From positions 12,386,148-12,450,147 of the forward strand of contig CM061914.1 in NCBI GenBank assembly GCA_031002005.1: a stretch of DNA of 64,000 nt, read 5' to 3'. Each line of letters starts with the position of its first letter. The first letter of the stretch is position 1. This document shows positions 1-63,381 of this stretch, piece by piece. The position numbers were made by a program, and so were the translations under genes. The notes beneath the pieces are model-generated. The model did no database searches. It was not told the origin of the DNA and worked only from the letters and a program-made list of their open reading frames with translations. The stretch is from Vandiemenella viatica. Taxonomy: Eukaryota > Arthropoda > Insecta > Orthoptera > Morabidae.

Positions 1-340
1 GGCAATTTCCCCACACACCAAACTTCCCCCTATCCTGCACCCACCTAAATTTGCCCTCTACAAATTTCAACTTTAAATTCTTTTAACGTATTGGGTAAGT
101 TATTCATCATTTTCCTTGGTAACTCACTTTTGGTGCACTTTTCCTGGCAATTAAAGAGTACATGGATCAGTAATCAAATCTACAACCAGCCGTCTTTTCA
201 TACCTCTATTGCATACAACAAATACTATGAAAATAAGTTAGATGAAATTACCCACATAATGTGTTCAAATTTCTGATTGCCATTTTCTGTAAACAGCTTG
301 AAGTGTGCATGGCAGCCACCCCAAAACCTCAGTATGCAAA
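1..340. other. Intronic sequence, no feature seen
   Basis: AT-rich sequence inside a BMS1 intron. Short open frames show no recognisable motif or splice-supported exon. Confidence 0.5.
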
Positions 341-1207
341 CTAACAAGCTGTGCTTTGTATACAAGTTGCTTAGTGAGGAGCCAGGGATTCGAACTAACA
401 AGCTGTGCATTGTATACAAGTTGCTTAGTGAGGAGCCAGGGATTCGAACTAACAAGCTGTGCTTTGTATACAAGTTGCTTAGTGAGGAGCCAGGGATTTG
501 AACTAACAAGCTGTGCTTTGTATACAAGTTGCTTAGTGAGGAGCCAGGGATTCGAACTAACAAGCTGTGCTTTGTATACAAGTTGCTTAGTGCTAACAAG
601 CTGTGCACTGCATACAAGTTGCTTAGTGAGGAGCCAGGGATTCGAACTAACAAGCTGTGCACTGCATACAAGTTGCTTAGTGAGGAGCCAGGGATTCGAA
701 CTAACAAGCTGTGCACTGCATACAAGTTGCTTAGTGCTAACAAGCTGTGCACTGCATACAAGTTGCTTAGTGAGGAGCCAGGGATTCGAACTAACAAGCT
801 GTGCACTGTATACAAGTTGCTGAGTGAGGAGCCAGGGATTTGAACTAACAAGCTGTGCTTTGTATACAAGTTGCTTAGTGAGGAGCCAGGGATTCGAACT
901 AACAAGCTGTGCTTTGTATACAAGTTGCTTAGTGCTAACAAGCTGTGCACTGCATACAAGTTGCTTAGTGAGGAGCCAGGGATTTGAACTAACAAGCTGT
1001 GCACTGCATACAAGTTGCTTAGTGAGGAGCCAGGGATTCGAACTAACAAGCTGTGCACTGCATACAAGTTGCTGAGTGAGGAGCCAGGGGATTCGAACTA
1101 ACAAGCTGTGCACTGTATACAAGTTGCTTAGTGAGGAGCCAGGGATTCGAACTAACAAGCTGTGCATTGTATACAAGATGCTTAGTGAGGAGCCAGGGAT
1201 TCAAACT
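341..1207. repeat. Minisatellite, 54-bp unit with 36-bp short units
   Basis: Seventeen head-to-tail units begin with CTAACAAGCTGTG. Most are 54 bp; the units starting at 557, 701 and 899 are 36 bp because they lack the segment GAGGAGCCAGGGATTCGA, and the unit at 1043 has one extra G. Both lengths are multiples of three, so long open frames appear on both strands; they are artefacts of the period. Two sequence classes (TTTGTATAC and ACTGCATAC) alternate in blocks. The minus strand of each long unit contains GTTCGAATCCC, like the B box of a tRNA. The array sits in a BMS1 intron. Confidence 0.95.
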
Positions 1208-16700: not shown

Positions 16701-19700
16701 TCCACAAGAGCATCATCTTCATCAGCCATTCTTCCACTGTGGTATGTAGTCAACACCCTCATTTTTTCTGTTTTATTACCCCAGAAATCTACCCCAAGTA
16801 ACTCATGGTCAAGATTTATGAACACTAGTGAACTGTAATAAATTTCGCTAACCAGGTACACTTTGCAATCTCTGTTAAAAACCTCATTGTCTAGTACCTC
16901 TTCTTTTAACCAAGACTCTACACCTATAATTAGTTGAGTTTTGTGTTTCTCTATTAAGTTGGCAAAATGGTGGGACATATCCTAACATTTTGGTCTCTAC
17001 TAACTCCCTCTACCCTCCAGGACCTTTGAGTCTGCAATGAAAATGCTGTGATGAGTTCCAGACATTGGAAAGGGATATGAATCGTATAATATAAGGTTCC
17101 TGTTTGTAATTTTAATGCTAATATTAACCTTAGAATCTATTTTTAACTTTTGTATATGGCATACAACTTTAAATTTTACTTTCAAATGTATTTTATTATA
17201 TCTATATATGTGATGTAATTCATGAATGATAAAATAAATTGCAACTTAACATATTAAATTCAATTAAAAATGATAGTTTGAGAGAGGATCAGTTGGTACT
17301 GATTCAAATAATGTTAGCTTTATAATAGCACAGAGGTTAGTTTCAGTTGGAATCATGCACACACAATTTTTGTGATTTTAATTAACTTTGGAGTGGATTT
17401 TTCAACTCACTTGCTTCATTTGATTTATTGGTTTTCTGCCTAGAATTTGAATGCTTCTCTCCAGTTTCCAAGTCTTCAAAATCACCATACAGCTCATCAT
17501 CGCTCAAAGCATCATCCAAACGCAACAGATCTTCAGCATCTTCTGACTCTTTCCAAGTTCCAGTAACAAAGCAGTCTTTAATAAGTTCCTGTACCTGAAA
17601 CATTTATAATAACAAAATAAAAATAAAGGAATTTTCTTATATCACACTATGGAGAGAGAAAATGGTTGAATATGCACTAGTAAGCAAGTATGGATTGCGG
17701 AACTCGTATACTGCAATTATGATATACGTCTATCTATACTATTATAAATTTGTAAGCCAGCTGTCTTTGAAACCACATCACACAAAAACTGCCACAGTAA
17801 ATTGGATGATGTTTTTACATTTTTAGAGCTTATGGTCAAGATTTAAATCTCTGAAAATAGCTTATGACTTATATCTACTGAGGGATGAAGCAAGAAATTA
17901 AAATAATGTTGAGATTGGACAAATATAGGACATGGATCAAACTATATTTGGGATGAACACTCCTTTTAAGAAAAAATTACAAAATATTAAACTACTTATC
18001 TTAGGATTCTGTTTTATTTCTTGAATCTGGTTATTAAGTTCTTCATTTTTGTGAAATACAGTACATTAAAATAAATGGAATATTTGAATCACACATAATA
18101 CAAGAAAGCATGAGTAATATTTAATTTACTGTAAGCACAAACATTGACATGCCATCATAACAGGTACGCTACCATTTGGAATGTGTTAGAGTGTATTAAC
18201 ATCTTTGACAGTTAAAAAATTTGTCTTTGGTATGACATGTTTGCTACAGTCGATGAACGCTGTACTTTAAAAACATTAATGTGTGATACTTCTCCCCTAC
18301 ATGTCATATGGATGCAGAATTCATTGTTTCCTCGAAGAAAGATGCCAGAAAAAAGAGCTACAATAAACATCAAAACGTAACATTACATATGTGCAGAACT
18401 GCCCACATTTTTAACAATTTTACGCAATTATTATTATTACTCTGTGATTCACTAAAAGTGTGTGGCGGAGGGTGCATTGCACCTATCCAAATGGGTAATA
18501 GTTTGGAAGGGCTATACGGGCTATGACAGGAGGCGCCCATGGGCTATTGAGAGGAACCATCCCGGCATTCACGTAGAGTGATCTGGGAAAACCATGGAAA
18601 ACCCAGATCAGGATGGCCGGAGATCTTTATCCAGAACTACTCCTGTGTGATTTTAAGTTTACTCGCCCGGTAAACCCTTTCTATTCCATTTCCTAATGGC
18701 TCGTGGAAAAAATGAGTACAGAAATAAATTGTTTGTGGCCCTGATTTCTCTTACTTTATTTTCGCAGTAATTCCTAGATATGAATGTTGCTGTTAGCACC
18801 AATTGTTTGCTATCATTCCCAAATAAGTCAGTTGTGAATTTTTCAATTAGCTCACGACAGACGTGAGCAATGCCTCCAGTGTTTTAGGTCTTCCCAATCT
18901 AACTCCTTCAACATCGCACTTACACTTTCCTTACAACTATACATACCTGTCACAAATTGGGTGTCTCTTCTTTGGACCTTCTTTAATGCTTCAATTAACC
19001 CGTTTTGATGGGGACTCCATACAGAACAACAATATTCTAAGTGAGGACGCATTAGTGGCAAGAATTTAACTTCCGGAGTGCATTGTTTTAAACTACTATT
19101 TGCTTTCCCAATTACCTTCTCGATATGCCCATTCCACGACAAATTATTACAAATTGTTACCCCCCCCCCCCCCGTATTTAGCAGAATCTCCTGTTCTAAA
19201 GACAATACCATTAATTGTATATCCAGAGCTAAATGGTGTCAAATCTTTACTTACATGGATGACTTGGCACTTTTTATCATTTACACCATGCAATTATTTT
19301 CATATCATCATTTCGTAACAACGCGCAGTCGTCCTGGGTTTTGATTTAACTATAAATAATAGCATCATCAGCATATAACCTTTTCTTTCCCTTATTATGT
19401 CGTACAAATCATTAATGCAGACCAGCAGTCGCATCCTGGACTGCATTCTTCACGCCGACCACTGGGCGCTACCTGAAGATGATGGCATGTTACGCCATCA
19501 AAAATTCGTACATCTACGACCAAATGATCCGGCTGCATGCCTGAGAGATCTTCAAACATCAGAAAACTTACGATTACATATATGAGAAACAACAGAGCCC
19601 CTATCATGCTTCCATGGGAAACCCTGGATCTCACTTCATTAAGTGATGGACGCTTAATGCTGAGAACTACACACTCCGTTCTGCCCTTCAGAAAGTCTGC

Positions 19701-22700
19701 AACCCAGTCAAATATTTGTCTAGATATGCTAAAAGCATGAAGTTTCCTAAGTAACCTAGTGTGAGGAGTGTCAAAAGCTTTTTTAAATTCTAATAGAACA
19801 AGTCAACCTAGGATTGCTCATCTATAATATGACATAAGTCGTGAATTAAAAGTGCAAGTTGTGTTTTGCAGCATTGGCCTTTTCTGAATCCATGTTAATT
19901 TGGGTTTAAAAAATCACCTTCATCCAAAAACTCCATGAAATTTGAATAGATTATAGAGAATATATTTGATCATTACAATGTGCAAATATTCTTGAATAAT
20001 ACTGCCCAAGGAACATTGGTACAGATTCTGACTGATGTCCAAAACACGGCCAGTGGAAAAATTTGTTATTTTGCGCTGGAAATATGGTTAGCACATACCG
20101 CAGACATTAGTATTAAAGAAAAAGTGCACTTAAAGCATAAAAAACACGTAAGAGAGAAATAATACAATGCAAATCACCGGGTTATGTGCGATATTAGCCA
20201 ATGAGTAGCAGCCATCATTATCGTGAATGTGTTTTTTCGTGTGTGCTACAAGTGCTGATTTTCAAGAAAGTGGAGGTTGGGTTGAAATGCTGCCTGGACT
20301 AGAATGATGACTAAGATTCTATGGTATAAAGTTGATTTTGAGTGAAGAAAGTGGCCGACATGCCGAATTCTGATTATAATGATTTCAAAAGTGGCTGGAG
20401 GTGACTGCTGCTAAATCAGTAATCTGCATAACCATGTTGTGGTTAGATTGAAATGCTGCCAGGACCGAGATGACAGATAATATCTGTGAAGCATAGTGGA
20501 TTTTGAGAGAAGAAGGTGGGTGCCATGCCGAATTTGGACTATAATGATGTCAGAATCAACTCAAGATGACTACTGGCGCTAAGTACCCATAAGTAACCAT
20601 ATTTATCTTTTAGCTTTCACCTTCAGGAGTAAACGCCAAAAAAACAGCTAACCATATTTTAAACCAGAAAGGATAAATTTTTCTGAAATACATATTAACG
20701 AAGTAACTTTATTCCTTACTTACAGCTTTACACATGATCAACATTTAGGTCTATAGAAGAGGTGAAGGGCTGGGGGCACGGTATGAGAAAGAGTTTGGTC
20801 ATAGCCCTTTGAAGGAGCCATCCTGGTATAGTTTTTTTGGCAAACCACAGAAAACCGAAATCTGGATGGCTGGAAAGGGATTTGAATACTTATACCTAAA
20901 ATGGTGGCTGATATAGGGCATTTTGGGGATTGTTTCCTAATGCCCTCATCAGGATGATACAGGTGGTTAGAAAAATCACACAATTTGTTTCTGCATAAGG
21001 CACCCCATCGATAACTTAAACTCACTTAATTTTTGGGTTACAATGTACTGGCAGCCTATAGGTTTATGCGTATTATACGTAGAGTACTATCCCCAGTTAA
21101 TCTGTTGGTCCAAGATTCCAATTCCAAAAATTGCATCTGTCTCAAGATAAGTGCAAGGTAAAACCTTGATTTCTAGGTTCCCCTGGTTTTGGCTTTGGTG
21201 GGGGAGGTTGAGCCGTGCTCGGCTCTTGTTGTATCTTTGCCTTCTCTTCTCTTCCGTTCACGATTGTTTCCTCTTTGGTGTTCCCCCATTAGAGAGCGCT
21301 GGGGCTTCTGGCGATAGCGGGTATATATGTGGGGTCACGGAAGGAGTGAGTCAGTTGGAGGCATGCGATCGGCATTCCGCTAATGTTTCCAGGAGTGATA
21401 GCTTTGCGGGAGTAAGGAGGAAGCAGTCAGTGAGGCAGTCAACAGTCGATTGGTTATGCCTGGTATTTCTCACAGTGGCCGTGACGCAGCTTGGTGGTTT
21501 GACCGGGCCGCCCAAGGATTATACTTCTGGTGAATTGGTGGGTCCCTCGCGACCGTGCTTCGACCACCTGCAGAGAGGCAATTTCTCCGATACACTCTTC
21601 ACCGAGAGTGCTGTGCCGAAGCTTCGGGAACACCGTGGCGATCGACCTGGGTGGTACTTTTCGAGCTGAAACCTGCCTTCTCGCCCTAGGAGGGTATTGG
21701 AGGTAGTGGCCGTCAACTGCAACCACAAGTGTCGCCTTCTGCCTCGTCGTTAGCGGTCTGCCTCAGCCATAAATTGTGTTTGCTCCTACTGGCAGAGTGT
21801 TAGATGCTGGTAGATGAGAACGAGCCGGTCTTGTTATTTATTGATCTACGTGGAATTGTCGGTGAGTACAGGATTATTCATACGTTAATCTACAAGATCG
21901 AGGCCGGTGTTATTTGACATTATATTAGTCATTTTCTCTGTCAATTACTACTACGAGTGTGTCGCTTTTTACCTCGTCGTTAGCAGTCTGGCTCAAATAT
22001 AAAATTGTATTTGGCTAGTAGATTATTAAGAGCCAGTCTGGTTATTTTCTATAATTTGGTATAAGTAGGATTGTTTGTAATTATAAGGGTCATTCAAGGT
22101 ATAAGTTGCAAGACCAAGGTTTGGTCCATAATATTATATCATTTTGTGATAACAAGATTATTCATATCTTCGTTTGCAAGACCAGGATTGGTGGTATTTG
22201 ATATTATAGTTGTAACATTTTCTGTAAGTTTCAGCATTATCATTAATAATTGTAATACACCAATGTGTAAACAAGGCTTGAACTGCTAACCATGTTCCCA
22301 CTGTATCCTTGTGGATAATTACTGTCTGTTAGTAGTAGTAGCACCGCCTCAACATACATCACTATCAAATTCATGTAAACTTGGCCACTGAATTAAATTT
22401 GTTATAATGGCATAGAAATATATTCATATGGTAACATTAGTTTACATACTATTGGTGGTATCAAACGTGATTAGAAATTGCCACCAACTGTACTGCTGAG
22501 GGTATCGTATATGGTAAATTTCATGTACAATTATGTCTAAGGTACAATTTTTTTTGGTGATAATGATATCAAAATGAATCAAATTAGGATAGGGAAATGA
22601 GCCACCACTTACCTCTAGATGATGGATGTGGGGTGCGAACACACAGAAAAGACACAAACTGAAATAATAAAGTAATTTTTGGGATAAACCTTTCGTCAAC

Positions 22701-31700: not shown

Positions 31701-34700
31701 CTTTCACTTTTAACATTTTTTTATCAGATGTTTTCGATAATTTCTCAAACTAAAAATTAGATTCCCTGAAAGAACTAAAAATCTAGTATAACATATTTAA
31801 ATTTCAGAACATTCCATCCAGTAGAATAGATTTTATATAAATTTTAAAGTCATTTCGTCATATATCACAACGTGGTTTCATTCGATAATTATCTGCGACT
31901 AAACCAACCATTTCCGTAAATAAAACACATAATTAAATTAATAGAAAATTCTGATAACTTCACTTTTTAGATATAAGCAGCAGAAGGATAATTATGAACC
32001 AGAAACTAAGTGTTTGCAAAACAGTTTTCAAACCCACTCTTGTTAAACAGATAACTTTGCTATTACACCACCGATAATAATAAAATTTACACCACTGAAA
32101 TCAGGAATTTTTATAGAACACGATGACACCAATCTTGTCACGATAATTTTAAATTCAACAGGGTCGCCTAAAATTTATCAATACGCCTGAAAACTAAATT
32201 CATTTACAACCAAGATAATTATTTGAGAATTTTCACTAAATACTTTTCATAATGTGTGAGTGGAGACTTTCCCGGTGTAGTGATGAAATATAATCTTCAC
32301 AGGTGTTCAGCCAAATGGTGTCAAAGTAACACGACGTTTCGACAGTAAGCTCGGCTGCCCTCATCAGGTATCGGTGTGTGCTGGCTGTCACCGCGTCCAC
32401 TGACTTAGCTCCTCGACGCACCTCCTTATCTACCTGCCTGCGTGGGGCGTCCGACCAATCAGAGCGCACCCGCCCCACCAGGGAGTGCCAGCGGTCCCGG
32501 CCGGTGGGAGACCCCTCCCCCCCTGATTGGTCGATGGCTAGTCCCCGGATACCCGCGGCGCCCAACTGGTGTCATTAGCCGCTTTGACGGCGTGTAGTGT
32601 CCTGCTTTGCTCTCGTCGGAGGTCGTTAATAATGGGCCTCCAGGATTCGCTCAGAAAGAGCCCGCCGTCCCTATTTATTTTCTGGTCGTTCAGTCAAATC
32701 TCCAACGCCTCCTTTATGACCGAGTCTTAGAAAGTGGAGGCCCTGGTCAACACTACCGTTTTGTCAAACTCAATCATGTGCTCGTGGTCGAAAGCATGCT
32801 CCGCTACGGCCGACTTTTCAAGCTGTCCCAGCCTTAGACGACGATTATGTTCGGAAAGGCGCTCTTCAATGGTTCTGGTGGTCTGTCCAATGTACACCTT
32901 GCCGCATTCACACGGTATGGAGTAAATGCCTGGGGACCTCAAGCCTAGGTCATCTTTGACTGAGACGGCCGGAAAATACTTTTTATACCAAACCGCGCCA
33001 GAAGTCTACCTGTCTTTCCTGACGTGTTTGCGGCATATGGCAGGAAGGCAAGAGTTTTTGGAGGTTCTTCTTGCTCCGATGGTGTTCTCGGTGGTTTCTG
33101 CGTAAAGGCCCGTTCGATCAGCCGCCGGGAATAACCGTTTCGTTCGAAGATCGTCCTAAGATGCTTCAATTCACCAGGCAAGCTCTCCTTGTCGGAGATA
33201 GCTCTCACCCTTTGCACCAAAGTGGACAGCACAGAGTTGCGCTGGGCCGGGTGATGAAAGCTCTCTCCACCCAAGTAACGATCCGTGTGGGTGGGCTTGC
33301 GGTACACGCTGTGCGATAAAGTACCGTCAGATCTTCTTTTCACCAGGATGTCCAGGAAGGGGAGGCACCCGTCAACCTCTACCTCCATCGTAAAACGTAT
33401 ATTAGGATGAATCCCGTTGAGATGTTTGAGAAATTCATGTAGTGCCTCGATGCCTGTGGCCACACAGCAAAAGATTCATCCACATATCGGTAGAAACAAG
33501 ATGGCTCGAGGGTGGCATTCTCTAGTGCCCTCTCCTCGAACTCTTCCATGTAACAGTTCGCTACTACTGGGGAGAGCGGCGACCCCATCGCTACTCCGTC
33601 GGTCTGTTCAAAGTATTTCCCTCCATAAATGAAGTAGGTGGAAGTCAGTACGTGCTCAAACAAGTCTGCGATAGCTGGTTCAAAATCGCGGCGAATCAGC
33701 TCCAGTGTGTCCCTCACCGGTACCCGGGTAAAGAGGGATACCACGTCGAAGCTGAATGGTATTTTGCTGTGGTTTACTTCCGTGAAACACCACATTAACA
33801 GCAGATCCGTGAAGAAAATATTGCATCGAGCCAGCTTCTCTCTATTACGGGAAAGAATTCATTTCACGCGCTTCGAACTCGACCGTAACGCTCGGTCGTT
33901 ATTACCTTGTCACTACAACCTGTCGGCAAACCTCGCCCCGATCTCCTGGGACTGGGTGGACACTGCTACTTCAGCGCAAATGAACCTGGAATGGGAGAGA
34001 ACTACTACGAGGCTTATCGCCAAATACGACCGACTGGCGGGCAGCTCACAGGTTTGCAGATCTGCTGAATCTGATAGGGTTGTGGTCAACCACACCGGAT
34101 TGCAACTTGATGAAGCCACTACCTCCGTATTGGCCCGGGGGCTAAAATTCGAACCAGCTCCTAAGCGAGTTCCCGTGAAGGAGATGGTCTGCGCGGTAGA
34201 ACAGGCTGTGCGTGACCTACCGGCGGAAGAAGCTGAAGAAATACGACGTGAGACCTGTCGGGTCTTGAAGAAGGCCAAGATACCTAAGAACAACATTACG
34301 ATAGCAGAGCGGAAGGCACTAGATGCCTTACACCCCAGAGACGACATAGTCGTTCTTCCAGCGGATAAAGGCAACGCGACTGTCCTTCTTTCCGCCAAAC
34401 AATACGAGGAAAAGGTATTGAAATTACTTGACGACGCTTTTTACACTCTGCTGGACGCCAACCCTACTGCAAAAGTCGTAAGGAAGACGCTGGCCCTCAT
34501 CAAGAAGGCCAAACTACCGGAACAGGTGGCCAAGATGATCAAACCACACACTGCAGGACCTCCAAGACTGTGTGGCCTACCCAAGGTCCACAAACAGGAT
34601 GTCCCATTGAGACCTATTGTCAGTGCCATTGGGGCACCAATCTACCAGCTTTCAAAGTATTTGACACGCCTTCTCAGCACCCTGGTGAGCCGGTGTTGTC

Positions 34701-44182: not shown

Positions 44183-44941
44183 AATATTTTTATTCCTTTT
44201 TTATATGCAATAATCATTTATCATTGATTTTATTAAAATTCATTTACGAATTTTTATTATGCGAAATAACTTTTAAAACGACATATTACAGAATATACAG
44301 TTCCAACTTTTTTTTTTTTTTAGAAAATCATTATTTAATTGTTTATTGTATATAAGTTTATTGTTTATGTGGTTTTTTTTTTTAAATGAAACTGGTATAT
44401 TTCATGTTCATTGTTTCTATACTTGTATCTCTACAATTAATATCATAAGAGTAAATATATTACAGCCAGAAGGTCAGTTTTCTCCCCCCTACCACAGTTA
44501 TACTTATTTCCGTGCAGTGGTGGTAGCATGTAAATGTTTGAAAATAACATAATGTCTATTTGTGTAGCTGCAATAACTTTAGCATGCTGAAATTCACTTG
44601 GTCCTACTCTCACACCCAGGACACATTCTTGGATGTGGATTTGTCCCTATCCAATAGCTATCTCAACTCTTCAGTTCACATCAAACTAACCAACCTTCAA
44701 CAGTATCTCCATTTCGACAGTTGCCGCCCATACCATACCAAACGTTCTCTCCCCTACAGTCTTGGCATTCGAGGTTATTCGCCTGTGCTCCAACCAACAG
44801 TCTCTCATGGATTATTCAAACAGTATTTAAAAAGCATTAATATCTTGCAACTACCCTCCAGCTTTGGTTGACAAACAGCTTTCACGTGCAACATTACAAC
44901 TGAATCAGCCTATCAGTCATCCCAAACCCACAAAAACCAAT

Positions 44942-47281
44942 CACAATCCAGTCTTGGTCACACAGTACTACCCAGGCCGCGAATCCATCAACAGAATCCT
45001 CCGGCAGGGCTATGATTTCTTACAAACGTGTCCTGAAATGAGATCCATTCTTCCTAAACTCCTCCCTGCCCCTCCTAGAACTTGTTTCAGCAGACCTCCT
45101 AACCTCAGCGAACTTCTAGTCCACAATCCAGTCTTGGTCACACAGTACTACCCAGGCCTCGAATCCATCAACAGAATCCTCCGGCAGGGCTATGATTTCT
45201 TACAAACGTGTCCTGAAATGAGATCCATTCTTCCTAAAATCCTCCCTGCCCCTCCTAGAACTTGTTTCAGCAGACCTCCTAACCTGAGTGAACTTCTAGT
45301 CCACAATCCAGTCTTGGTCACACAGTACTACCCAGGACTCGAATCCATCAACAGAATCCTCCGGCAGGGCTATGATTTCTTACAAACGTGTCCTGAAATG
45401 AGATCCATTCTTCCTAAAATCCTCCCTGCCCCTCCTAGAACTTGTTTCAGCAGACCTCCTAACCTCAGCGAACTTCTAGTCCACAATCCAGTCTTGGTCA
45501 CACAGTACTACCCAGGCCTCGAATCCATCTACAGAATCCTCCGGCAGGGCTATGATTTCTTACAAACGTGTCCTGAAATGAGATCCATTCTTCCTAAAAT
45601 CCTCCCTGCCCCTCCTAGAACTTGTTTCAGCAGACCTCCTAACCTGAGCGAACTTCTAGTCCACAATCCAGTCTTGGTCACACAGTACTACCCAGGACTC
45701 GAATCCATCAACAGAATCCTCCGGCAGGGCTATGATTTCTTACAAACGTGTCCTGAAATGAGATCCATTCTTCCTAAAATCCTCCCTGCCCCTCCTAGAA
45801 CTTGTTTCAGCAGACCTCCTAACCTGAGCGAACTTCTAGTCCACAATCCAGTCTTGGTCACACAGTACTACCCAGGACTCGAATCCATCTACAGAATCCT
45901 CCGGCAGGGCTATGATTTCTTACAAACGTGTCCTGAAATGAGATCCATTCTTCCTAAAATCCTCCCTGCCCCTCCTAGAACTTGTTTCAGCAGACCTCCT
46001 AACCTCAGCGAACTTCTAGTCCACAATCCAGTCTTGGTCACACAGTACTACCCAGGCCTCGAATCCATCAACAGAATCCTCCGGCAGGGCTATGATTTCT
46101 TACAAACATGCCCTGAAATGAGATCCATTCTTCCTAAAATCCTCCCTGCCCCTCCTAGAACTTGTTTCAGCAGACCTCCTAACCTCAGCGAACTTCTAGT
46201 CCACAATCCAGTCTTGGTCACACAGTACTACCCAGGACTCGAATCCATCTACAGAATCCTCCGGCAGGGCTATGATTTCTTACAAACATGCCCTGAAATG
46301 AGATCCATTCTTCCTAAACTCCTCCCTGCCTCTCCTACAACTTGTTTCAGCAGACCTCCTAACCTCAGCGAACTTCTAGTCCACAATCCAGTCTTGGTCA
46401 CACAGTACTACCCAGGCCTCGAATCCATCAACAGAATCCTCCGGCAGGGCTATGATTTCTTACAAACGTGTCCTGAAATGAGATCCATTCTTCCTAAAAT
46501 CCTCCCTGCCCCTCCTAGAACTTGTTTCAGCAGACCTCCTAACCTGAGCGAACTTCTAGTCCACAATCCAGTCTTGGTCACACAGTACTACCCAGGACTC
46601 GAATCCATCTACAGAATCCTCCGGCAGGGCTATGATTTCTAACAAACGTGTCCTGAAATGAGATCCATTCTTCCTAAAATCCTCCCTGCCCCTCCTAGAA
46701 CTTGTTTCAGCAGACCTCCTAACCTCAGCGAACTTCTAGTCCACAATCCAGTCTTGGTCACACAGTACTACCCAGGCCTCGAATCCATCAACAGAATCCT
46801 CCGGCAGGGCTATGATTTCTTACAAACATGCCCTGAAATGAGATCCATTCTTCCTAAAATCCTCCCTGCCCCTTCTAGAACTTGTTTCAGCAGACCTCCT
46901 AACCTCAGCGAACTTCTAGTCCACAATCCAGTCTTGGTCACACAGTACTACCCAGGCCTCGAATCCATCAACAGAATCCTCCGGCAGGGCTATGATTTCT
47001 TACAAACATGCCCTGAAATGAGATCCATTCTTCCTAAAATCCTCCCTGCCCCTCCTAGAACTTGTTTCAGCAGACCTCCTAACCTCAGCGAACTTCTAGT
47101 CCACAATCCAGTCTTGGTCACACAGTACTACCCAGGACTCGAATCCATCTACAGAATCCTCCGGCAGGGCTATGATTTCTTACAAACATGCCCTGAAATG
47201 AGATCCATTCTTCCTAAAATCCTCCCTGCCCCTCCTAGAACTTGTTTCAGCAGACCTCCTAACCTCAGCGAACTTCTAGTC
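44942..47281 (+). repeat. Thirteen tandem 180-bp units within a PLE ORF
   Basis: Units start at 44942 and every 180 bp to 47102. Each encodes 60 residues: [59 protein letters not shown]. Period is exactly 60 codons, so the frame is kept; the only stop is a TAA (46640-46642) in the tenth unit where others have TTA. Units alternate between SINRIL and SIYRIL forms from the third to the tenth, giving a 360-bp higher-order period. Divergence is a few bases per unit, indicating recent amplification or homogenisation. Confidence 0.97.
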
Positions 47282-47740
47282 CACAAACACAGTCTTGCTA
47301 AAAGTCAGCCACAAGGCTCTTTCCCATGTAATAGACCTCGCTGCAAGATGTGTGACATACATCATGCTTCCACCACTTTCATCAACCCTGTCACAGCGGA
47401 AAGCTTCCCTATCATAGGACACGTCACCTGTGAAACCACCCATGTAATAAACCAGTCAACATGCAACCAGTGCCTGGCTTCATGTATAGGTTTGACCACA
47501 AATGCACTCTCCATAAGAATGAATGGCTACCGACAGACGGTGTTCACACAGAACCCGAAGCACCCAGTTGCTGCCCATGCTATAACCCACGACTTGAATA
47601 ATTTCAACTCTTGTTACCATGCTATCAGAGTTCTCCCTAATAGCAGCAGTTTCTCTGAAATCAGAAGGTGGGAACTTGCCTACCAGTACAAATTTGGCAC
47701 AAGGCAACCACCTGGTCTCAACTTGAGATTATACCCGGTC
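47282..47740 (+). pseudogene. PLE GIY-YIG C-terminal region (degenerate)
   Basis: [74 protein letters not shown] and [18 protein letters not shown]. The family block IYxLxCxxCxxxYIGxTTxxLxxRMNGHR is recognisable but the Tyr residues of the GIY and YIG motifs are replaced here (VINQ and CIGL), so nuclease activity is doubtful although the frame is open from 46658 to 47779. Confidence 0.85.
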
Positions 47741-47756
47741 ATTATTATTAGTAGTA

Positions 47757-47965
47757 TTGAGACATGCTGGATTGGTTAATTTGTTTGTAGAGGGAACAGT
47801 CGAAGGTAAGAACTGTAGAGGTAGACACAGATTAGAATATATGAAGCAGATAATTGAGGACGTGGGTTGTAAGGGGTATGTAGAAACTAAAAGGTTAGCA
47901 CAAGATAGGAAGGGATGGAGGATTGCATCAAACCAGTCTAAAGACTGACGACAGCAAAAAAGTAT
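47757..47965 (+). mobile_element. LINE 3' fragment inserted in the PLE tail
   Basis: Encodes the extreme C-terminus of a LINE ORF2: VEGTVEGKNCRGRHRLEYMK, IIEDVGCKGYVETKRLAQDR and KGWRIASNQSKD then stop. The block EGxxEGKxxRGRxRxEY...LAxDRxxWR is common at the end of RTE/L1-like LINE ORFs. AGTATT occurs on both sides (about 47753 and 47959) and may be the target duplication. The uninterrupted PLE sequence is seen near 24960-25025. Confidence 0.7.
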
Positions 47966-56686: not shown

Positions 56687-57960
56687 TTAAAAAAAAGGAA
56701 TCGCCTGCACTACTTTCCAGTCAGAAGGTACTTTTCTTTCTTCTAAAGATTTACAAAATAAATCTGACAGAAATGGTTCTATTTCTTCCGCGTATTCCGA
56801 AAATACTCTTACTGGTATACCATCGGGACCCGGCGCTTTCTCCCACTTCAGGAGCTTTAATTGCTTTATGATACCTAAACTATCAATTTGTACTGGATCC
56901 ATCTCAAATTCTACACGCTGTGGAAAAACGGGAATGTTTTCCATGTTTTCCTCAGTGAAGGAATTTTTAAATTTGGTGTTAAATACGGTAGCCTTGTCGC
57001 GGCTGTCATCAACTTCCCCACCGTCTTGTAGTAGAACTGGCATATTGTTGTCACAATTGTTTTTTAAGTACGACCAAAATTTCTTTGGATTTTCAATGAG
57101 GCTCTTGGAAAGTGAGTTGCAACGAAAGTCATTAAAGGCCACGCGCATCACATTCTTGACATGTTCTCTTGTCTCAGCTAGCTTTTCTAAATCACTCCTA
57201 TACATCGTCCTTCTTGAGCGTGCATGTATCTTCCTTTGCTTTTTAAGTAACCTTTTAATTTCACGTATATACCACGGGGGATCGTTCCCATCCCTGATTG
57301 TCCTTTTCGGTATATGTAAGTCCATTCCAACCCTCACTATATTTATGAATCGAAGCAACATCTCTTCAACCGAGCCTCTTCCTTCTATAAAGGTAATGTA
57401 ATTGTCCCTCAAAAATGTTCTTAAAATCTCCTTTGGGGCCTTTTCGAACCTGTAAATGACCATTTCTTTTTTCTTTTTGCATGCGACTGTTAATTTTACT
57501 GTAGCATTTACAGCTTTAAGATCACTTATTCCCGTGATGGTAGAAATGTCCATGAATAATTCAGAACTATTTGTAATGAGAATATCTAGAATGTTTTCGT
57601 TATCGTTGTGGCACCGCGTTGGTTCAGTGATGAGCAGCTCAAGATTAAGATCTGAGAAAAGGTCAAGAATAATTTCACAGGGTGTTTCATCCCTCCTACC
57701 AGTAACGTGGGCGTAATTATTCCAGTCAATATACAGAAAGCTGAAGTCACCTCCTAGTATTATTCCATGATACGGAAATTGACGAGGGCCTCGGCAACAG
57801 CTACATCTGCATCTGGTGGACGATAGAAAGAACCTATTACAAGTTTTGTCCTTGCTACTTTTAGTCTAATCCATAGGATTTACAGACGGTATCAATATTT
57901 ATTTTGTTACACGACAGGTGTTTACGAACAGCTATAAATACACCACCTTCATTTGAATGT
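56687..57960 (-). pseudogene. LINE endonuclease C-terminus, linker and RT start
   Basis: IILGGDFSFLYIDWNNYAHV, EPTRCHNDNENILDILITNS, TITGISDLKAVN (SDH block with Leu for His), WYIREIKRLLKKQRK, FWSYLKNNCDNNMPVLLQDG, KWEKAPGPDGIPVRVFSEYA and ERKVPSDWKVVQAIPFF. The last 288 codons (57553-56687) are open. Upstream it is cut by the LTR element at 57968. Confidence 0.88.
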
Positions 57961-57967
57961 AACCTAT

Positions 57968-58670
57968 TGTAACAGCCCTAATACCTGTATTTTGAATAGC
58001 AATATACTGCATGAAGTATTTGTAGTGAGCCAAAGTTTGCTTGAAAGTGATTTGATATGTTTATTTTGTAAATTCTGGTAAATCAGTGTATATAGACTTT
58101 ATTTTATGTAAGAAAAGTATTTAAAGTCCATTTAATATGTTTAATAACCGAATGGTGCAAGAGTATTTCTTAAAAGTTGTATTTCCATGTATTACTGTAA
58201 TTTACGATGTCTACAGGACGATTTTCTACCGTTTGAAAGGATTTCTGTAAATAATTTTGTATTTAAGTATCTCTAATTACCATTTCTAATCATTTTTTAA
58301 TGTTATTAATTAATTTTGTATCAATTCCGATTGTTTTTAATATGTTTGATTGTTTGAGTGATTGTTTATGATCGAGAAATATCGGGCGGATGCCTTTGAA
58401 GAATTCTCGTAAATTCGATAGACTCTATATAAACAGATCGCCTGCACAGAGAGTTTAGTTTGCATTAAGTATTCATTCAGTGTTACAGAGACATTCATGC
58501 AAGTTTTCATTCAGTAAGTCAGTATTGCATCTTTGGATTGTAACAACTATGCTTGTGAATGTCGCAGACTTGTTTTGATTGAAAATAAACGAGCATCAAC
58601 ATAACCTTGTTTTTGGTGGACTTTATTAATTAATTAATGCAGTAAATTAACCCACCAAAGAACCTTAACA
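57968..58670 (+). repeat. 5' LTR, 703 bp
   Basis: TGTAACAGCC...CCTTAACA. Contains a TATA-like CTCTATATAAACAG near 58425 followed by an initiator region, and an AATAAA at about 58584 as polyadenylation signal. Confidence 0.96.
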
Positions 58671-58688
58671 TGGCGACCGTTGACATGA
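58671..58688 (+). promoter_or_regulatory. Primer binding site, tRNA-Arg-like
   Basis: TGGCGACCGTTGACATGA directly abuts the 5' LTR. TGGCGACCGTGACA is the arginine-tRNA primer site of the mdg1/412 group of Gypsy elements; here one base is inserted or changed. Confidence 0.7.
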
Positions 58689-59149
58689 CGAGAAGTTCTT
58701 AAACATCTGTGGGATGTTTATCTTCTAAAAAGAATCTGCAGAAAATTGCGACGGATTATCGGCGATAAGCGAACATAACCTGCGAGGAAATTTCGACCGG
58801 CTACGACACGGATTTGACGCCGAGTGGATCTTCTTCGGCCTAAGGCGGAGAATTTTCATCGGGAATCGGCTGTAATCTTCCGACGTCGAGTGGATTCCCT
58901 TCGGCCTCAAAATCGTCTTCCTACAGTGAATTGTGAAAAGTGTGGTTAAGTGTTTGAAGACAGTGTGGTGTTTAATGGTTAAATAAGTGCTTCTAAGTGA
59001 AATTTAATGTGATACAAAAGTGAGGAATAACTGTAAGTATGGCATTGAATATTCAAGTGATTTCTTTTGCATGTTATCGTGTGGCAGTTTGCAAAGATTT
59101 TAATTTTCCTTAATTTTGTTTTGTATGTTGATTTTGCTAATTACTAAAA

Positions 59150-60577
59150 ATGGCTGATAATCAGAACCTGCAAGCTTTCCTAGAGTCTTTTGTAGCCAGT
59201 TTTAATGCAAAGTTTTCCGAATTTGACAACAAATTTTCTGAACTTGATGGTAAATTTGACAACAAATTTTCTGAAATTAAGTCTCAGTTTTCCGAAATTG
59301 ATGGCAAATTTGATAATAAATTTTCCAAATTTGATAGCAAATTTTCTGAAATTAATTCTCAGTTTGCTGTAATCAATGATCAGTTTTCTCAATTGCAACA
59401 AAACAATGATAAAACATTCTCTGATTTGACTAAATGTTTTGATGTTAAAATCGCAGAGCAATTTCAGGGTTTTAGCTCTCAATTCAAGGAAGATATTAAC
59501 AATTTAGATTCTAAATTGGGGAAGGTAGTAACAGAATGTAAAGAGAAATTTGAAAAGGTTACAAAATTTTGTGAACAGAATAAGGCTGAATGTGAAAATT
59601 TGATTTATAAAGAGGTGAAGGAAGTCAGTGAAAATTGTGATAAGATGAGGGAGGAATATGTCACTTTATTCCAAGCCAATGATAGTAAAGCTGCTCAAAG
59701 GGTCAATGAGTTGAGACAGGAAGTGGTTGGTATAGGGAAAAATGTTAATGCATTGGCAAATCATCAGGAACAACTTACCCAGGGATTGGAGACAACCCAA
59801 TCTAACGTTAATCAGTTAGAGAAAAGGGTTACTGGGTTGCAGATTCAGTTAAGTCAGGTTCCCTTAACAGGTAATCCAAATTTCAGTGTCGATGTAAAAG
59901 AAGAATTTGAATTCTATGATGATAGTGGGAGGCTGCACCCTATTGAATTTATAGATAATTTTGAAAGGTCAGACTACTTTAATTTGTTACCCGATAGTAA
60001 GAAAATTGCACTTGTGGGTAAACATCTAAAATCTTATGCTAGGACATGGGGTGATAGACAAGCTAGGGAAGTGACTGACTACAAGCTGTTTAAAGAAAAC
60101 TTTTTGAAACATTTTTGGTCGACAAGCAGGCAGATTCAAGAAAAGAGGGAGTTGATGACGGGAAGGCCCTATAAACCTGGTAGGGAAACTCAACATGATT
60201 TTTTCCATAAATGTTGGATCCGTTGTAAGTATTTAGACCATCCTTATGGAGAGGAGGAATTTATTGATTTGATAGGAGCTAGGCTACCTCAGCAAACAAG
60301 AAATTTAATTGCCACTTTGGATGTAGTAAATGTGGATAGAGTTTCTGAATTGTTAAGACGCCTGGATGCCCAGGAGTCATTCAATGAACAACATTACCAC
60401 CATCAACACCATAGGAGGGGCAGCAGGAGTCCCCCTAGAAGGGGTAATGGGTCAAGGGATGGTAGATCGAGGGGACGGGATCGTAATAATTATGCAAGAA
60501 GGAATGATAATGGGGAAGTGAGAGAACAGAACCCTCAATCTGAAAGGGAAAGGCAGCATGGGGGGCAGGTAAACTGA
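59150..60577 (+). CDS. gag: Gag protein of the LTR retrotransposon, 475 aa
   Basis: Forms the particle that packages element RNA. Residues about 14-85 are a run of short repeats built on NKFSELDGKFD- and KFSEINSQF-like units with Phe/Leu spacing that suggests a coiled coil. Residues about 85-230 are also heptad-rich. A Gypsy-type capsid follows (FDVKEE region: EEFEFYDDSGRLHPIEFIDN, KLFKENFLKHFWSTSRQIQE, GRETQHDFFHKCWIRCKYLD, FIDLIGARLPQQTRNLIATL). The C-terminus is Arg/Gly/Ser-rich (RRGSRSPPRRGNGSRDG) and lacks a CCHC zinc knuckle. The ATG at 59150 follows a 479-nt leader and opens the conserved frame. Intact, no stops. The C-terminal 34 nt overlap an open minus-one frame that leads into ORF2. 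Confidence 0.9.
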   Translation: MADNQNLQAFLESFVASFNAKFSEFDNKFSELDGKFDNKFSEIKSQFSEIDGKFDNKFSKFDSKFSEINSQFAVINDQFSQLQQNNDKTFSDLTKCFDVKIAEQFQGFSSQFKEDINNLDSKLGKVVTECKEKFEKVTKFCEQNKAECENLIYKEVKEVSENCDKMREEYVTLFQANDSKAAQRVNELRQEVVGIGKNVNALANHQEQLTQGLETTQSNVNQLEKRVTGLQIQLSQVPLTGNPNFSVDVKEEFEFYDDSGRLHPIEFIDNFERSDYFNLLPDSKKIALVGKHLKSYARTWGDRQAREVTDYKLFKENFLKHFWSTSRQIQEKRELMTGRPYKPGRETQHDFFHKCWIRCKYLDHPYGEEEFIDLIGARLPQQTRNLIATLDVVNVDRVSELLRRLDAQESFNEQHYHHQHHRRGSRSPPRRGNGSRDGRSRGRDRNNYARRNDNGEVREQNPQSERERQHGGQVN

Positions 60578-60591
60578 AGACCACCCCTGTT

Positions 60592-61596
60592 ATGGGCCCC
60601 GCAGTGGTGGACAAGAAGGTGGGTCCAGGTACCAACTGCTATAGCGTTAATTCCATTTTTATGAATAATCCCCGAGAAGATTTATTGGAAGAGGTGGGGG
60701 TATCAGCAAGTGAATTTCAGGATAAGGTTATGATAGATGTAATTAATAATGTTGATGATTTAAAGACTGATAATAAGATAAAGTGGGAAGGGGACCACCA
60801 TAGTACCTTATCACTAGAATCAGTGTGCGAAAGTAATAATTTTCATGTAGAAGATTTTCGAAATGGTCACTGCCTAATTACAAAAAGGGGTGCAGAATTT
60901 ATAGTGCATACTACAGTGCGGCTATCAGAAACTTGTAAGGTCCAGAATGGTATAGTTGGGACTATGTGTGCTAGGATAGGTGGTAATGAAGTTTGTAGAA
61001 GTGCTGAAATCGAGGAGTTTCTCAAATATCTTGAAGATGAAGGTGATACAGTGGTGTGGATAGGAGACCCAGATGAGGAGGAGAATTGTAATTCAAAGTA
61101 TTTGTCTTCTGAAAAGAGAGAGGTTGAAAAGCCTTATGTACCAATCCCTAAGTTGGAAAAATGTCCTAATTTTGACCTAGCTGATACGTTATTTAGCTCT
61201 TTATTTGGTGTAGATGATGACATTGAAGAAATGGGTGGGAGTAAGGATTTATTTGAACCAGTTTCTAATTTAGAAAATTGTACAGAATGTGACTTAGATG
61301 ACACTATGTTTTGTACTCTCTTTGATGTGGAAGCTGATAGTGAAGTAGTAGTTGCTGAGAAAAATAATTATTTGGTGGATGAAGTCAGTAAGCCAGATGT
61401 TAAAACAGTTTTAGGTACTGACTCAGATAATTTGGTAAGCTTAAGTAGTAATCAGATGATGAAGAGTGGGGTTGGTAGTAATGATGGACTAAACTGCAGT
61501 AGTGAGAATAATAAATTTGTATTACCAGTTGAGTCAACAGCATTGCTTTTAAGTGACGATCAATTTGCTAAAACAGAACCATTGTATGTTGTCTGA
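60592..61596 (+). CDS. Unrecognised acidic ORF2 of the LTR retrotransposon, 334 aa
   Basis: It stands where pol should begin, in the minus-one frame relative to gag, and the frame is open back to 60544, across the gag stop. I recognise no protease (no DTG/DSG), RT, integrase or envelope feature, no signal peptide and no membrane segment. The protein is rich in Asp, Glu, Asn and Ser. Two internal repeats, KCPNFDLADTLFSSLFGV (about 199-216) and NCTECDLDDTMFCTLFDV (about 237-254), suggest a duplicated short motif. Its intact length in a young element argues for selection, though it could be a remnant. No function is proposed. Confidence 0.75.
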   Translation: MGPAVVDKKVGPGTNCYSVNSIFMNNPREDLLEEVGVSASEFQDKVMIDVINNVDDLKTDNKIKWEGDHHSTLSLESVCESNNFHVEDFRNGHCLITKRGAEFIVHTTVRLSETCKVQNGIVGTMCARIGGNEVCRSAEIEEFLKYLEDEGDTVVWIGDPDEEENCNSKYLSSEKREVEKPYVPIPKLEKCPNFDLADTLFSSLFGVDDDIEEMGGSKDLFEPVSNLENCTECDLDDTMFCTLFDVEADSEVVVAEKNNYLVDEVSKPDVKTVLGTDSDNLVSLSSNQMMKSGVGSNDGLNCSSENNKFVLPVESTALLLSDDQFAKTEPLYVV

Positions 61597-62305
61597 GATG
61601 ATTGGAAGTTTGTGTTTCTGTATGTATATAATGAAGCTTTGTGAAAATAGAAATGTAATATTAAATGAGTATACAAAAGTTGAAGAAAACTGGAAGGTTA
61701 GGGAAAAGTAACTTACATGGTTCTGGGTTTCCAGGGAAATCCTGAAACCCACTTATGAGAATTAATTGAAATGCATGGTTTGGGGAGGGGTCAATAGCCT
61801 GTAAATATCTAGTTTTGTAAATAAGTATGTCAATTGATGCATGTAAATAGTTTGTGTGAGCACTTAAGTTCAGATGCAGATGTAAGCATTTCAATGTATA
61901 ATTTGTGACAGTTTTGTGTAGAAACTTTTGGTATTTTCATGATGTTGTGACTTTCTACATTTTGGTGACAAATTATCAGTTGTAAAATGTAAACAGACTG
62001 GTGTAATTAACAAGCAGACATCAAGTGTGTAATTTGGAGTGAAAATAATTGTAACTTAAGGTGATGGCATTGAACGTTTGTTGAAAAAATGATTGGACCT
62101 GAGAAAAGACAATTATTGTAAACAAAATCAGTGTCATGGACTATGTGCAGATGTTGTATGTGATGAAGAATTGTACTTGTTCATTGTAAAAGTCATTATG
62201 GTTGATTGATTGTAATCTGTTCGTGTCTGCATTATGTGTACATTCAACCTGCTTAGATTCGTGACGGATTCAATCAATTTTATCTGTGTAAAATTAAGTG
62301 AATCC
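61597..62305 (+). other. 3' untranslated region of the LTR retrotransposon
   Basis: AT-rich, without open frames on the plus strand or recognisable motifs, between ORF2 and the polypurine tract. Confidence 0.6.
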
Positions 62306-62316
62306 TGGGGAGGGGT
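62306..62316 (+). promoter_or_regulatory. Polypurine tract
   Basis: GGGGAGGGGT-type run directly before the 3' LTR, the expected plus-strand primer. Confidence 0.75.
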
Positions 62317-63019
62317 TGTAACAGCCTTAATACCTGTATTTTGAATAGCATTATACTGCATGAAGTATTTGTAGTGAGCCAAAGTTTGCTTGAAAGTGAT
62401 TTGATATGTTTATTTTGTAAATTCTGGTAAATCAGTGTATATAGACTTTATTTTATGTAAGAAAAGTATTTAAAGTCCATTTAATATGTTTAATAACCGA
62501 ATGGTGCAAGAGTATTTCTTAAAAGTTGTATTTCCATGTATTACTGTAATTTACGATGTCTACAGGACGATTTTCTACCGTTTGAAAGGATTTCTGTAAA
62601 TAATTTTGTATTTAAGTATCTCTAATTACCATTTCTAATCATTTTTTAATGTTATTAATTAATTTTGTATCAATTCCGATTGTTTTTAATATGTTTGATT
62701 GTTTGAGTGATTGTTTATGATCGAGAAATATCGGGCGGATGCCTTTGAAGAATTCTCGTAAATTCGATAGACTCTATATAAACAGATCGCCTGCACAGAG
62801 AGTTTAGTTTGCATTAAGTATTCATTCAGTGTTACAGAGACATTCATGCAAGTTTTCATTCAGTAAGTCAGTATTGCATCTTTGGATTGTAACAACTATG
62901 CTTGTGAATGTCGCAGACTTGTTTTGATTGAAAATAAACGAGCATCAACATAACCTTGTTTTTGGTGGACTTTATTAATTAATTAATGCAGTAAATTAAC
63001 CCACCAAAGAACCTTAACA
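62317..63019 (+). repeat. 3' LTR, 703 bp
   Basis: Same length as the 5' LTR. I see two differences near the start (CCCTAATA/CCTTAATA and GCAATATA/GCATTATA) and none in the rest. Confidence 0.96.
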
Positions 63020-63381
63020 CTATCCTTATGGAAAACATTCATGCTAAAAAAATTTCTGCTGAACTTATATCCGGTTTTAACCAGCTTTCAGTACCTAATA
63101 CAATATCAGCTTCTGTGCTACTAATAACGCTTTCAAGCTCAGGCTGCTTATTACAAACAATTCTAGTTAAATAACAAGTACCTTTAACAGTCGAGATTGA
63201 TTTACGTTACTCCTAACATATAGTGCCAAATTTAATTGGGCTGCCCGTAACTGTAATCCCAGTTTTGGGTCTTCCTCACTCAGCCTAAAAAATCCCCCAA
63301 TGCACTCCACACGGCCCCTGCCACCCGTGTAGCCGATTCACGTGTGAAGTGCACACCTGATCTATCCGAGGGAGCACTACA

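What the first reader, a model, noticed from the sequence alone, without database searches (positions are those of the whole stretch)
57968..63019. Young LTR retrotransposon carrying gag plus an unknown ORF instead of pol
Both LTRs are 703 bp and differ at two sites by eye, the 4-bp duplication CTAT is perfect, and primer site and purine tract are present. The interior encodes an intact 475-aa Gag and an intact 334-aa acidic protein with no pol domain I can recognise. Gag-only LTR elements that borrow enzymes are known (TR-GAG type), but the long second ORF is not explained. It may be an accessory protein that helps a defective element exploit an autonomous partner, or may adapt its RNA or particle to the partner.
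Basis: partly seen in the sequence, partly recalled or inferred. Interest (0 to 1): 0.78.

Follow-up and report, generated by a model that had tools for sequence, protein, structure and literature searches.

The report
Pol-less retrotransposon family with orphan gene
This is a young mobile element of an unnamed animal-like genome that keeps a gene for the particle shell but carries an unfamiliar gene where its enzymes should be; a rarer relative with the same ends carries the enzymes, so it probably moves with borrowed machinery.

Summary
The element at 57968-63019 is real: 703-bp LTRs with two differences, perfect 4-bp duplication, PBS, PPT. Its own genome holds three young layouts with the same ends: type N (gag+ORF2; 15 read, window included), type A (gag+complete gypsy pol; 6 examined), type D (no gag or pol, two ORF2-type modules; 2 read). 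ORF2 begins with the pol leader (~52 aa) in pol's frame; a ~1.05-kb block of unknown origin then stands in place of ~3.27 kb of pol. Window ORF2 is not intact: a 32-bp deletion cuts it to 334 aa (family 372-383). Constraint on ORF2 is real but moderate: w 0.52 among N copies, 0.23 (0.10-0.46) for the domain against the type D paralogue, but 0.73 (0.52-1.02) against an older subfamily; 5 of 15 copies are broken. Gag was interrupted or lacked its start in 6 of 6 type A copies, uninterrupted in 7 of 15 type N (p=0.06): perhaps reciprocal dependence. Closest published case found: wheat RLG_Quinta (Gag+DUF1) with RLG_Cereba. ORF2's function is unknown; no expression data.

The parts
57964..57967 (.). 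target-site duplication, 5' copy (4 bp)
57968..58670 (+). 5' LTR, 703 bp
   Evidence: 2 differences to the 3' LTR; 40 of 3025 candidates scored in its own genome, 94-100% identical
58671..58688 (+). primer binding site, directly after the LTR; recalled as tRNA-Arg type with one extra base
   Evidence: same in 4 type N, 3 type A and 2 type D sequences
59150..60577 (+). gag, 475 aa; N-terminal coiled-coil repeats, capsid-like middle, basic tail, no zinc knuckle seen by eye
   Evidence: weak Ty3_capsid match (E=0.0062, below the curated cut-off); lies before pol in type A copies
60544..60577 (+). overlap of gag with the -1 frame that holds ORF2 (pol in type A)
   Evidence: open 60544-61593; same arrangement for pol
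60592..60747 (+). ORF2 aa 1 to about 52: pol leader (pre-protease segment) shared with type A
   Evidence: blastn match to L017, L025 and L032 ends at query base 170, 86-88% identity
60748..61799 (+). block of unknown origin that stands in place of about 3.27 kb of pol; holds the rest of ORF2 and 203 bp of 3' sequence
   Evidence: only chance-level matches to type A interiors
60592..61596 (+). ORF2, 334 aa in this copy; C-terminus truncated by a 32-bp deletion (family length 372-383 aa)
60841..61071 (+). conserved central ORF2 domain (aa about 84-160), also present as a diverged second copy in type D elements
   Evidence: w=0.23 against the paralogue
61153..61227 (+). acidic/hydrophobic motif, first copy (aa about 188-212)
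   Evidence: read; a related motif follows the type D paralogue
61270..61344 (+). acidic/hydrophobic motif, second copy (aa about 227-251)
   Evidence: read; the two copies match as an internal nucleotide repeat in L010
61800..62316 (+). 3' non-coding tail shared with type A copies
   Evidence: tail query bases 204-720
62307..62315 (+). polypurine tract
   Evidence: same in 4 type N, 3 type A and 2 type D sequences
62317..63019 (+). 3' LTR, 703 bp
63020..63023 (.). target-site duplication, 3' copy

Best explanation
The window holds a young copy of a high-copy, pol-less Ty3/gypsy family (type N). It descends from a gag-pol element in which pol after its leader was replaced by an unrelated module, ORF2. 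SHOWN: type N, pol-bearing type A and type D share LTRs, PBS, 5' leader, PPT and part of the 3' tail, and each has young insertions. ORF2 sits in pol's place, frame and leader. It has stayed open in many copies, a diverged copy of its domain replaces gag in type D, and that domain evolved under constraint. INFERRED: type A supplies protease, RT, RNase H and integrase in trans; type N RNA is packaged and copied because it carries the same signals; type N supplies Gag, which particles need in quantity. ORF2 is made the way Pol is made in type A (shift into the -1 frame near the gag end, or its own ATG within the leader), so it would enter particles as a low-level Gag-linked product and be freed by the partner's protease. 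Its likeliest role is an accessory particle or RNA factor that favours the pol-less elements. This last step is a guess.
For: Type A pol (query from L032) has PR, RT, RNase H, H2C2 and rve domains above cut-off; pol follows gag with the same leader. PBS and PPT are the same in the N, A and D sequences compared. LTR divergence is 0-1.0% in the 14 copies with both LTRs measured (11 N, 1 A, 2 D), and LTRs of the types are mixed in the tree. ORF2 search: 3343 first-look candidates; 117 of 120 scored rows have no internal stop (only the best matches are scored, so biased to open copies). Of 15 type N copies chosen by LTR, not by ORF2, 9 have ORF2 of 372-383 aa, one (the window) 334 aa, 5 are broken. 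Changes by codon position in the novel part 38/35/59, p=0.02. Frameshift indels: 8 in 879 bp of ORF2 against 18 in 601 bp of tail, p=0.004. Domain against type D paralogue w=0.23, bootstrap 0.10-0.46. L029 has identical LTRs but broken gag and ORF2, as expected if proteins come in trans.
Against: No expression, particle or protein data. Against the older subfamily copy L042, ORF2 gives w=0.73 (0.52-1.02), with aa 60-160 at 0.73 (0.42-1.52) and the acidic part at 1.04 (0.63-1.76). No codon-position signal in the leader (6/3/8, p=0.33) or the C-terminal 50 aa (5/8/8, p=0.65). Five of 15 copies have broken ORF2 and 8 of 15 interrupted gag. No canonical slippery heptamer was seen at the gag end by eye, and the RNA around it folds no better than shuffles (z=+1.3). 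Both structure predictions were uninformative (mean pLDDT 30.5 and 30.1). The neutral open-frame test is weak: P(at least 9 of 15 open) is 0.70 at 1% per-copy change, 0.12 at 2%, 0.025 at 2.5% (substitutions only).
Confidence: 0.62

Rival explanations
1. Same non-autonomous family, but ORF2 has no protein function: the block is a spacer that keeps RNA length or RNA signals, and its open frame is a fading relic.
For: w 0.73 (0.52-1.02) between subfamilies and about 1 in the acidic part; 5 of 15 copies broken and the window copy truncated; a broken copy still moved (L029); neutral open-frame simulation not decisive.
Against: Central domain w=0.23 against the type D paralogue; depleted frameshift indels (p=0.004); type D has two modules in one open frame, 586 codons without a stop in 7 of 150 scored rows; an open 461-codon frame in the older subfamily copy L042, though its sister L045 has a stop.
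Confidence: 0.22
2. Obligate two-part retrotransposon: pol-bearing elements have lost working gag and live on Gag from type N, while type N lives on Pol from type A. This extends the best explanation rather than excluding it.
For: Gag interrupted or lacking its start in 6 of 6 type A copies looked at (L017, two in tandem in L025/L037, L032/L040, L046, L047), two of them picked because pol was open; gag uninterrupted in 7 of 15 type N copies. Nine of 46 pol rows are full length without a stop.
Against: Small, unevenly chosen sample, Fisher p=0.061; 8 of 15 type N copies also have interrupted gag; type A copies with open gag may exist among those not read.
Confidence: 0.25
3. ORF2 is a captured host gene fragment carried as passenger.
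For: The block has no counterpart in type A and no known family above cut-off; gene capture by LTR elements is reported in rice and sorghum (title and abstract start of PMC3726574 seen in the listing).
Against: Of the four diverged genomic relatives read, three (L042, L043, L045) lie beside gag and the fourth (L044) is a broken fragment without gag in the 2.5 kb held; no host gene was found, but most diverged rows were not read.
Confidence: 0.15
4. Simple internal deletion of pol, ORF2 being a frame of leftover pol or env.
For: First ~52 aa are the pol leader.
Against: The ~1.05-kb block matches no part of the type A interiors beyond chance (best DNA E 0.15, best protein-query E 3.8); no RVP, RVT, rve or env family in ORF2.
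Confidence: 0.03

Closest known systems
RLG_Quinta with RLG_Cereba, wheat centromeric Gypsy pair (PMC11302176; passages read)
   Same: [quoted passage not shown] shares LTR ends and PBS with an autonomous partner; proposed to give Gag and take enzymes.
   Different: Plant; centromere-specific, proposed to act through the integrase CR domain. Here the genome is animal-like, gag and LTRs are nearly the same in both partners, ORF2 is fused to the pol leader in the -1 frame, and a third layout has doubled the module and lost gag. DUF1 was not available for comparison.
RLG_Sabrina / RLG_WHAM / RLG_Wilma, wheat (PMC9744471; passages read)
   Same: Semi-autonomous Gag(-Pro) elements and short variants with unique coding segments, thought to rely on a distinct autonomous family.
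   Different: There the partners share only a few essential motifs; here whole LTRs, leader and gag are shared.
TR-GAG elements of plants (term found listing; definition recalled)
   Same: LTRs, PBS, PPT and gag without pol.
   Different: TR-GAG elements carry gag alone (recalled); here a second ORF occupies pol's place.
Bdelloid rotifer LTR elements with additional ORFs (PMC5408684; passages read)
   Same: Animal LTR elements that acquired extra ORFs; [quoted passage not shown]
   Different: Those extra ORFs are ORF3s (env-like, GDSL, DEDDy); here the extra ORF stands in place of pol.

Membership tests
Ty3/gypsy LTR retrotransposon | LTR pair with TG..CA ends, short TSD, PBS, PPT | tested here: met
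Ty3/gypsy LTR retrotransposon | pol order PR-RT-RH-INT | tested here: not met
   Absent in the window copy; present in type A relatives sharing LTRs and gag, so it is a pol-less derivative rather than a full member
Ty3/gypsy LTR retrotransposon | Ty3-type capsid in Gag | tested here: inconclusive
   PF19259 E=0.0062, 16.4 bits against a cut-off of 29.1
Gag+DUF semi-autonomous element (RLG_Quinta type) | gag present, RT and INT absent, extra coding domain | tested here: met
Gag+DUF semi-autonomous element (RLG_Quinta type) | LTR termini, PBS and PPT shared with a pol-bearing family in the same genome | tested here: met
Gag+DUF semi-autonomous element (RLG_Quinta type) | extra domain homologous to DUF1 of RLG_Quinta | not tested
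TR-GAG | gag as only coding region (definition recalled) | tested here: not met
   ORF2 open in 9 of 15 copies at 372-383 aa and maintained across subfamilies
Errantivirus (env-bearing gypsy) | env ORF downstream of pol | tested here: not met
   No Pfam env hit in ORF2 or pol; pol ends about 30 bp before the shared non-coding tail in L017
Autonomous/non-autonomous pair | trans-mobilisation demonstrated | not testable with these tools
   needs expression or insertion data

The most novel reading that the evidence does not exclude
A three-part retrotransposon society in an animal genome: a rare element that has kept only working Pol, an abundant one that supplies Gag plus an accessory protein (ORF2) in place of Pol, and a third that carries only a doubled accessory protein. 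ORF2 would be a new kind of trans-acting retroelement protein, loaded into particles through the Pol route, by which the pol-less elements win packaging or copying over the pol-bearing one.
Probability: 0.22. Interest if true: 0.85.

Novelty: new variant of a known kind. Interest (0 to 1): 0.62.

Why it matters
Pol-less LTR elements are known mostly as gag-only or non-coding forms (recalled). A high-copy family that swapped its pol for an orphan, maintained gene, beside a rarer pol-bearing partner with damaged gag, would give a natural animal system for asking whether retrotransposons evolve division of labour, and what a gene can do for an element that already borrows its enzymes.

Tried and rejected
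Simple pol deletion or ORF2 as leftover pol/env: rejected. ORF2 homologues outside this genome: none in the protein database with one sequence (0 of 1834 candidates at E<=10) or an alignment (0 of 6693), none in viral contigs or phages. I take these collections to hold few animal genomes, so absence says little. Gag: none in the protein database (residues 235-420) or viral contigs; its PDB hits fall mainly in the coiled-coil part and were ignored. The weak RnlA_toxin match of ORF2 (E 0.22, 0.023 and, for L034, 0.0017, all below the cut-off) is taken as chance. Structure prediction: mean pLDDT about 30 twice, so no fold search was run. RNA structure at the gag end: none; Rfam at gathering score: none. 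Literature: searches listed no animal LTR element that I recognised as Gag plus a conserved non-pol ORF in pol's place; open-access text and listings only, so this is no proof of absence. PMC12992720 was opened for 'without pol'; the hits lay in the reference list and were irrelevant. In one search the ORF2 rows include a partly frameshifted L009 and the gag rows include one type A copy (L017). In one search the stop listed for L033 at codon 6 is an artefact of where the piece was cut; one search shows that it is interrupted near aa 300.
Full report
WHAT IS IN THE WINDOW. The element spans 57968-63019. Its LTRs are 703 bp each, differ at two positions (K2P 0.0029) and are flanked by a perfect CTAT duplication. 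A PBS follows the 5' LTR and a purine tract precedes the 3' LTR; that the PBS fits a tRNA-Arg end with one extra base is recalled, no call shows it. Gag (475 aa) has coiled-coil-like repeats at its N-terminus and only a weak Ty3_capsid match. ORF2 (334 aa, pI 4.3) has no Pfam match above cut-off, no PDB match and no protein-database relative. Its open frame is far beyond chance: 338 codons against a maximum of 141 in 2000 Markov sequences. Its codon usage fits that of gag in its own frame only (0.158 bits per codon, negative in the five others).

COPIES IN THE SAME GENOME. The assembly has 3.72 Gb in 8965 contigs; the LTR gave 3025 first-look candidates, of which 40 were scored. Two of the 40 rows are the window's; the other 38 lie in 28 loci, which I fetched. 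Fourteen are type N, gag+ORF2 (L009, L010, L012-L016, L018, L020, L024, L028, L029, L033, L035), 15 with the window. L030 is a type N copy with an RT-bearing insert inside ORF2 and was left out of the counts. Three loci are type A (L017, L025, L032), two are type D (L011, L034), and eight (L019, L021-L023, L026, L027, L031, L036) showed a lone LTR; in 8 of 8 the four flanking bases are the same on both sides, as for solo LTRs. Both LTRs could be measured in 14 copies, the window included: divergence 0-1.0%. Of these, 9 have matching 4-bp flanks (window, L009, L010, L012, L013, L015, L018, L029, L034), 3 do not (L011, L016, L017), and 2 run into another leader (L014, L033). An LTR tree mixes N, A and D. 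The sample is of copies most like the window's LTR, not a random sample of the family.

TYPE A. L017 shares LTR, leader, gag and the first ~170 bp of the ORF2 query with the window; about 3.27 kb of other sequence follows before the shared tail. That stretch is pol: it is 99.8% identical to that of L032, whose frame has protease, RT, RNase H, H2C2 and rve domains above their cut-offs. Pol lies in the -1 frame of gag with the same leader as ORF2; in L017 pol itself is split over two frames. A genome search with pol scored 40 of 28545 candidates, which I take to include other gypsy families. Nine of its 46 rows are full length without a stop, and further down the list full-length rows fall to 84-92% identity with many stops. 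From this I infer that young type A copies number in the tens, against 3343 first-look candidates for ORF2; both figures are rough.

WHAT ORF2 IS. Its first ~52 aa are the pol leader; the rest, with 203 bp of 3' sequence, has only chance-level matches in type A interiors. In type D the gag start is fused to a diverged ORF2-type domain, followed by ORF2. In both type D copies read, this frame is interrupted; in 7 of 150 rows of the genome search it is one 586-codon frame without a stop. Four diverged relatives were read. L042 and L045 form an older subfamily with gag 82-84% alike in DNA and ORF2 61-66% alike in protein; of the L045 LTR only 62 bp were held, 81% alike. L043 has gag at 70% and ORF2 at 35%, and L044 is a broken ORF2-like piece without gag in the 2.5 kb held. 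So gag and ORF2 have travelled together for longer than the present burst. ORF2 carries two copies of a short acidic/hydrophobic motif, related to one after the type D paralogue; its role is unknown.

SELECTION ON ORF2. Among 11 near-complete copies, pooled dN/dS was 0.58 for the whole ORF2 and 0.52 for the novel part, against 0.255 for gag in 11 copies (one ORF2 row partly frameshifted, one gag row type A). Among 15 type N copies, changes fell 38/35/59 by codon position in the novel part (p=0.02), but 6/3/8 in the leader and 5/8/8 in the C-terminal 50 aa (no signal); 103/65/160 in gag (14 type N plus L017); and 37/32/26 in the tail (p=0.38). Distinct frameshift indels were 8 in 879 bp of ORF2 against 18 in 601 bp of tail, p=0.004 (tail indels were counted only over its positions 20-590). 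Gag had 43 of 65 distinct indels out of frame in 1455 bp, about as dense as the tail, so ORF2 is kept in frame better than gag. Against the type D paralogue the domain has w=0.23 (0.10-0.46, 93 codons). Against L042, ORF2 has w=0.73 (0.52-1.02), its acidic part 1.04 (0.63-1.76); L042 against L045 gives 0.58 (0.38-0.94, first piece); gag of L010 against the same two gives 0.22. These subfamily copies are partly decayed, which raises w. I read this as real but moderate constraint, strongest in the central domain. Nine of 15 copies have ORF2 of 372-383 aa, the window's is cut to 334 aa, five are broken (L009, L012, L029, L033, L035).

WHO SUPPLIES WHAT. The PBS is the same in 4 N, 3 A and 2 D sequences, and so is the PPT; L040, a 5' piece of a type A copy, shows only the PBS and L032 only the PPT end. 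L029 has identical LTRs yet broken gag and ORF2, so a copy seems able to move without making its own proteins, unless both broke at once. Gag was uninterrupted in 7 of 15 type N copies and in none of 6 type A copies, two of which were picked because their pol is open (Fisher p=0.061). In one of the six (the outer copy of the L025/L037 tandem) the evidence is a missing start, since the gag runs over the edge of the locus. Reciprocal dependence is therefore a lead, not a result.

MECHANISM. Most likely: type A supplies enzymes in trans; type N RNA is packaged and copied through the shared signals, and type N supplies much of the Gag. ORF2, in pol's slot, leader and frame, would be made in small amounts and enter particles as Pol does. 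No slippery heptamer (looked for by eye) or downstream structure supports frameshifting in particular, and an ATG in the leader offers another route. What ORF2 does there is unknown; an accessory particle or RNA role is my best guess.

COMPARISON. The closest published case I found is wheat RLG_Quinta, with Gag and a DUF instead of pol, proposed to give Gag and take enzymes from RLG_Cereba (PMC11302176, passages); the RLG_Sabrina variants are similar (PMC9744471, passages). It therefore works like a known kind, but the kind of host, the fusion to the pol leader, the doubled type D and the possible gag/pol split differ.

Noticed in passing
L011, L034 (type D); rows: A third layout under the same LTRs has no gag and no pol: the gag start is fused to a diverged ORF2-type domain and then to ORF2; 7 of 150 rows keep one 586-codon frame without a stop.
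   Followed up: partly
rows with matches to paralogue residues 1-140 and frames of about 148 codons: Possibly a further variant in which the paralogue ends after about 148 codons.
   Followed up: no
G000:C4537:255173982-255174977: One ORF2 match lies in an 877-codon open frame, long enough for gag and ORF2 to be fused in one frame.
   Followed up: no
L025 with L037; L014, L033, L035: Tandem arrangements: an LTR is followed directly by another leader (PBS), or two interiors share an LTR.
   Followed up: partly
L030 1416-3062: A non-LTR retrotransposon piece (RT-like frame of 465 codons, antisense) sits in ORF2 almost exactly where types N and A diverge; related sequence is in the window near 18427-19955.
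   Followed up: partly
L042, L045, L043, L044: Older relatives: a sister gag+ORF2 subfamily, a decayed gag+ORF2 relic and a lone broken ORF2-like piece.
   Followed up: partly
window 56690-57865, - strand: The element landed beside or within a non-LTR retrotransposon (endonuclease/RT-like open frame, identity by eye).
   Followed up: no
window 228-1200 and 44831-47776: Long coding-like tandem repeats; the second repeats a unit resembling a piece of a known retroelement protein (recalled).
   Followed up: no
window 32948-33858, - strand: Open frames that look like a Penelope-like reverse transcriptase (recalled motif, no call).
   Followed up: no
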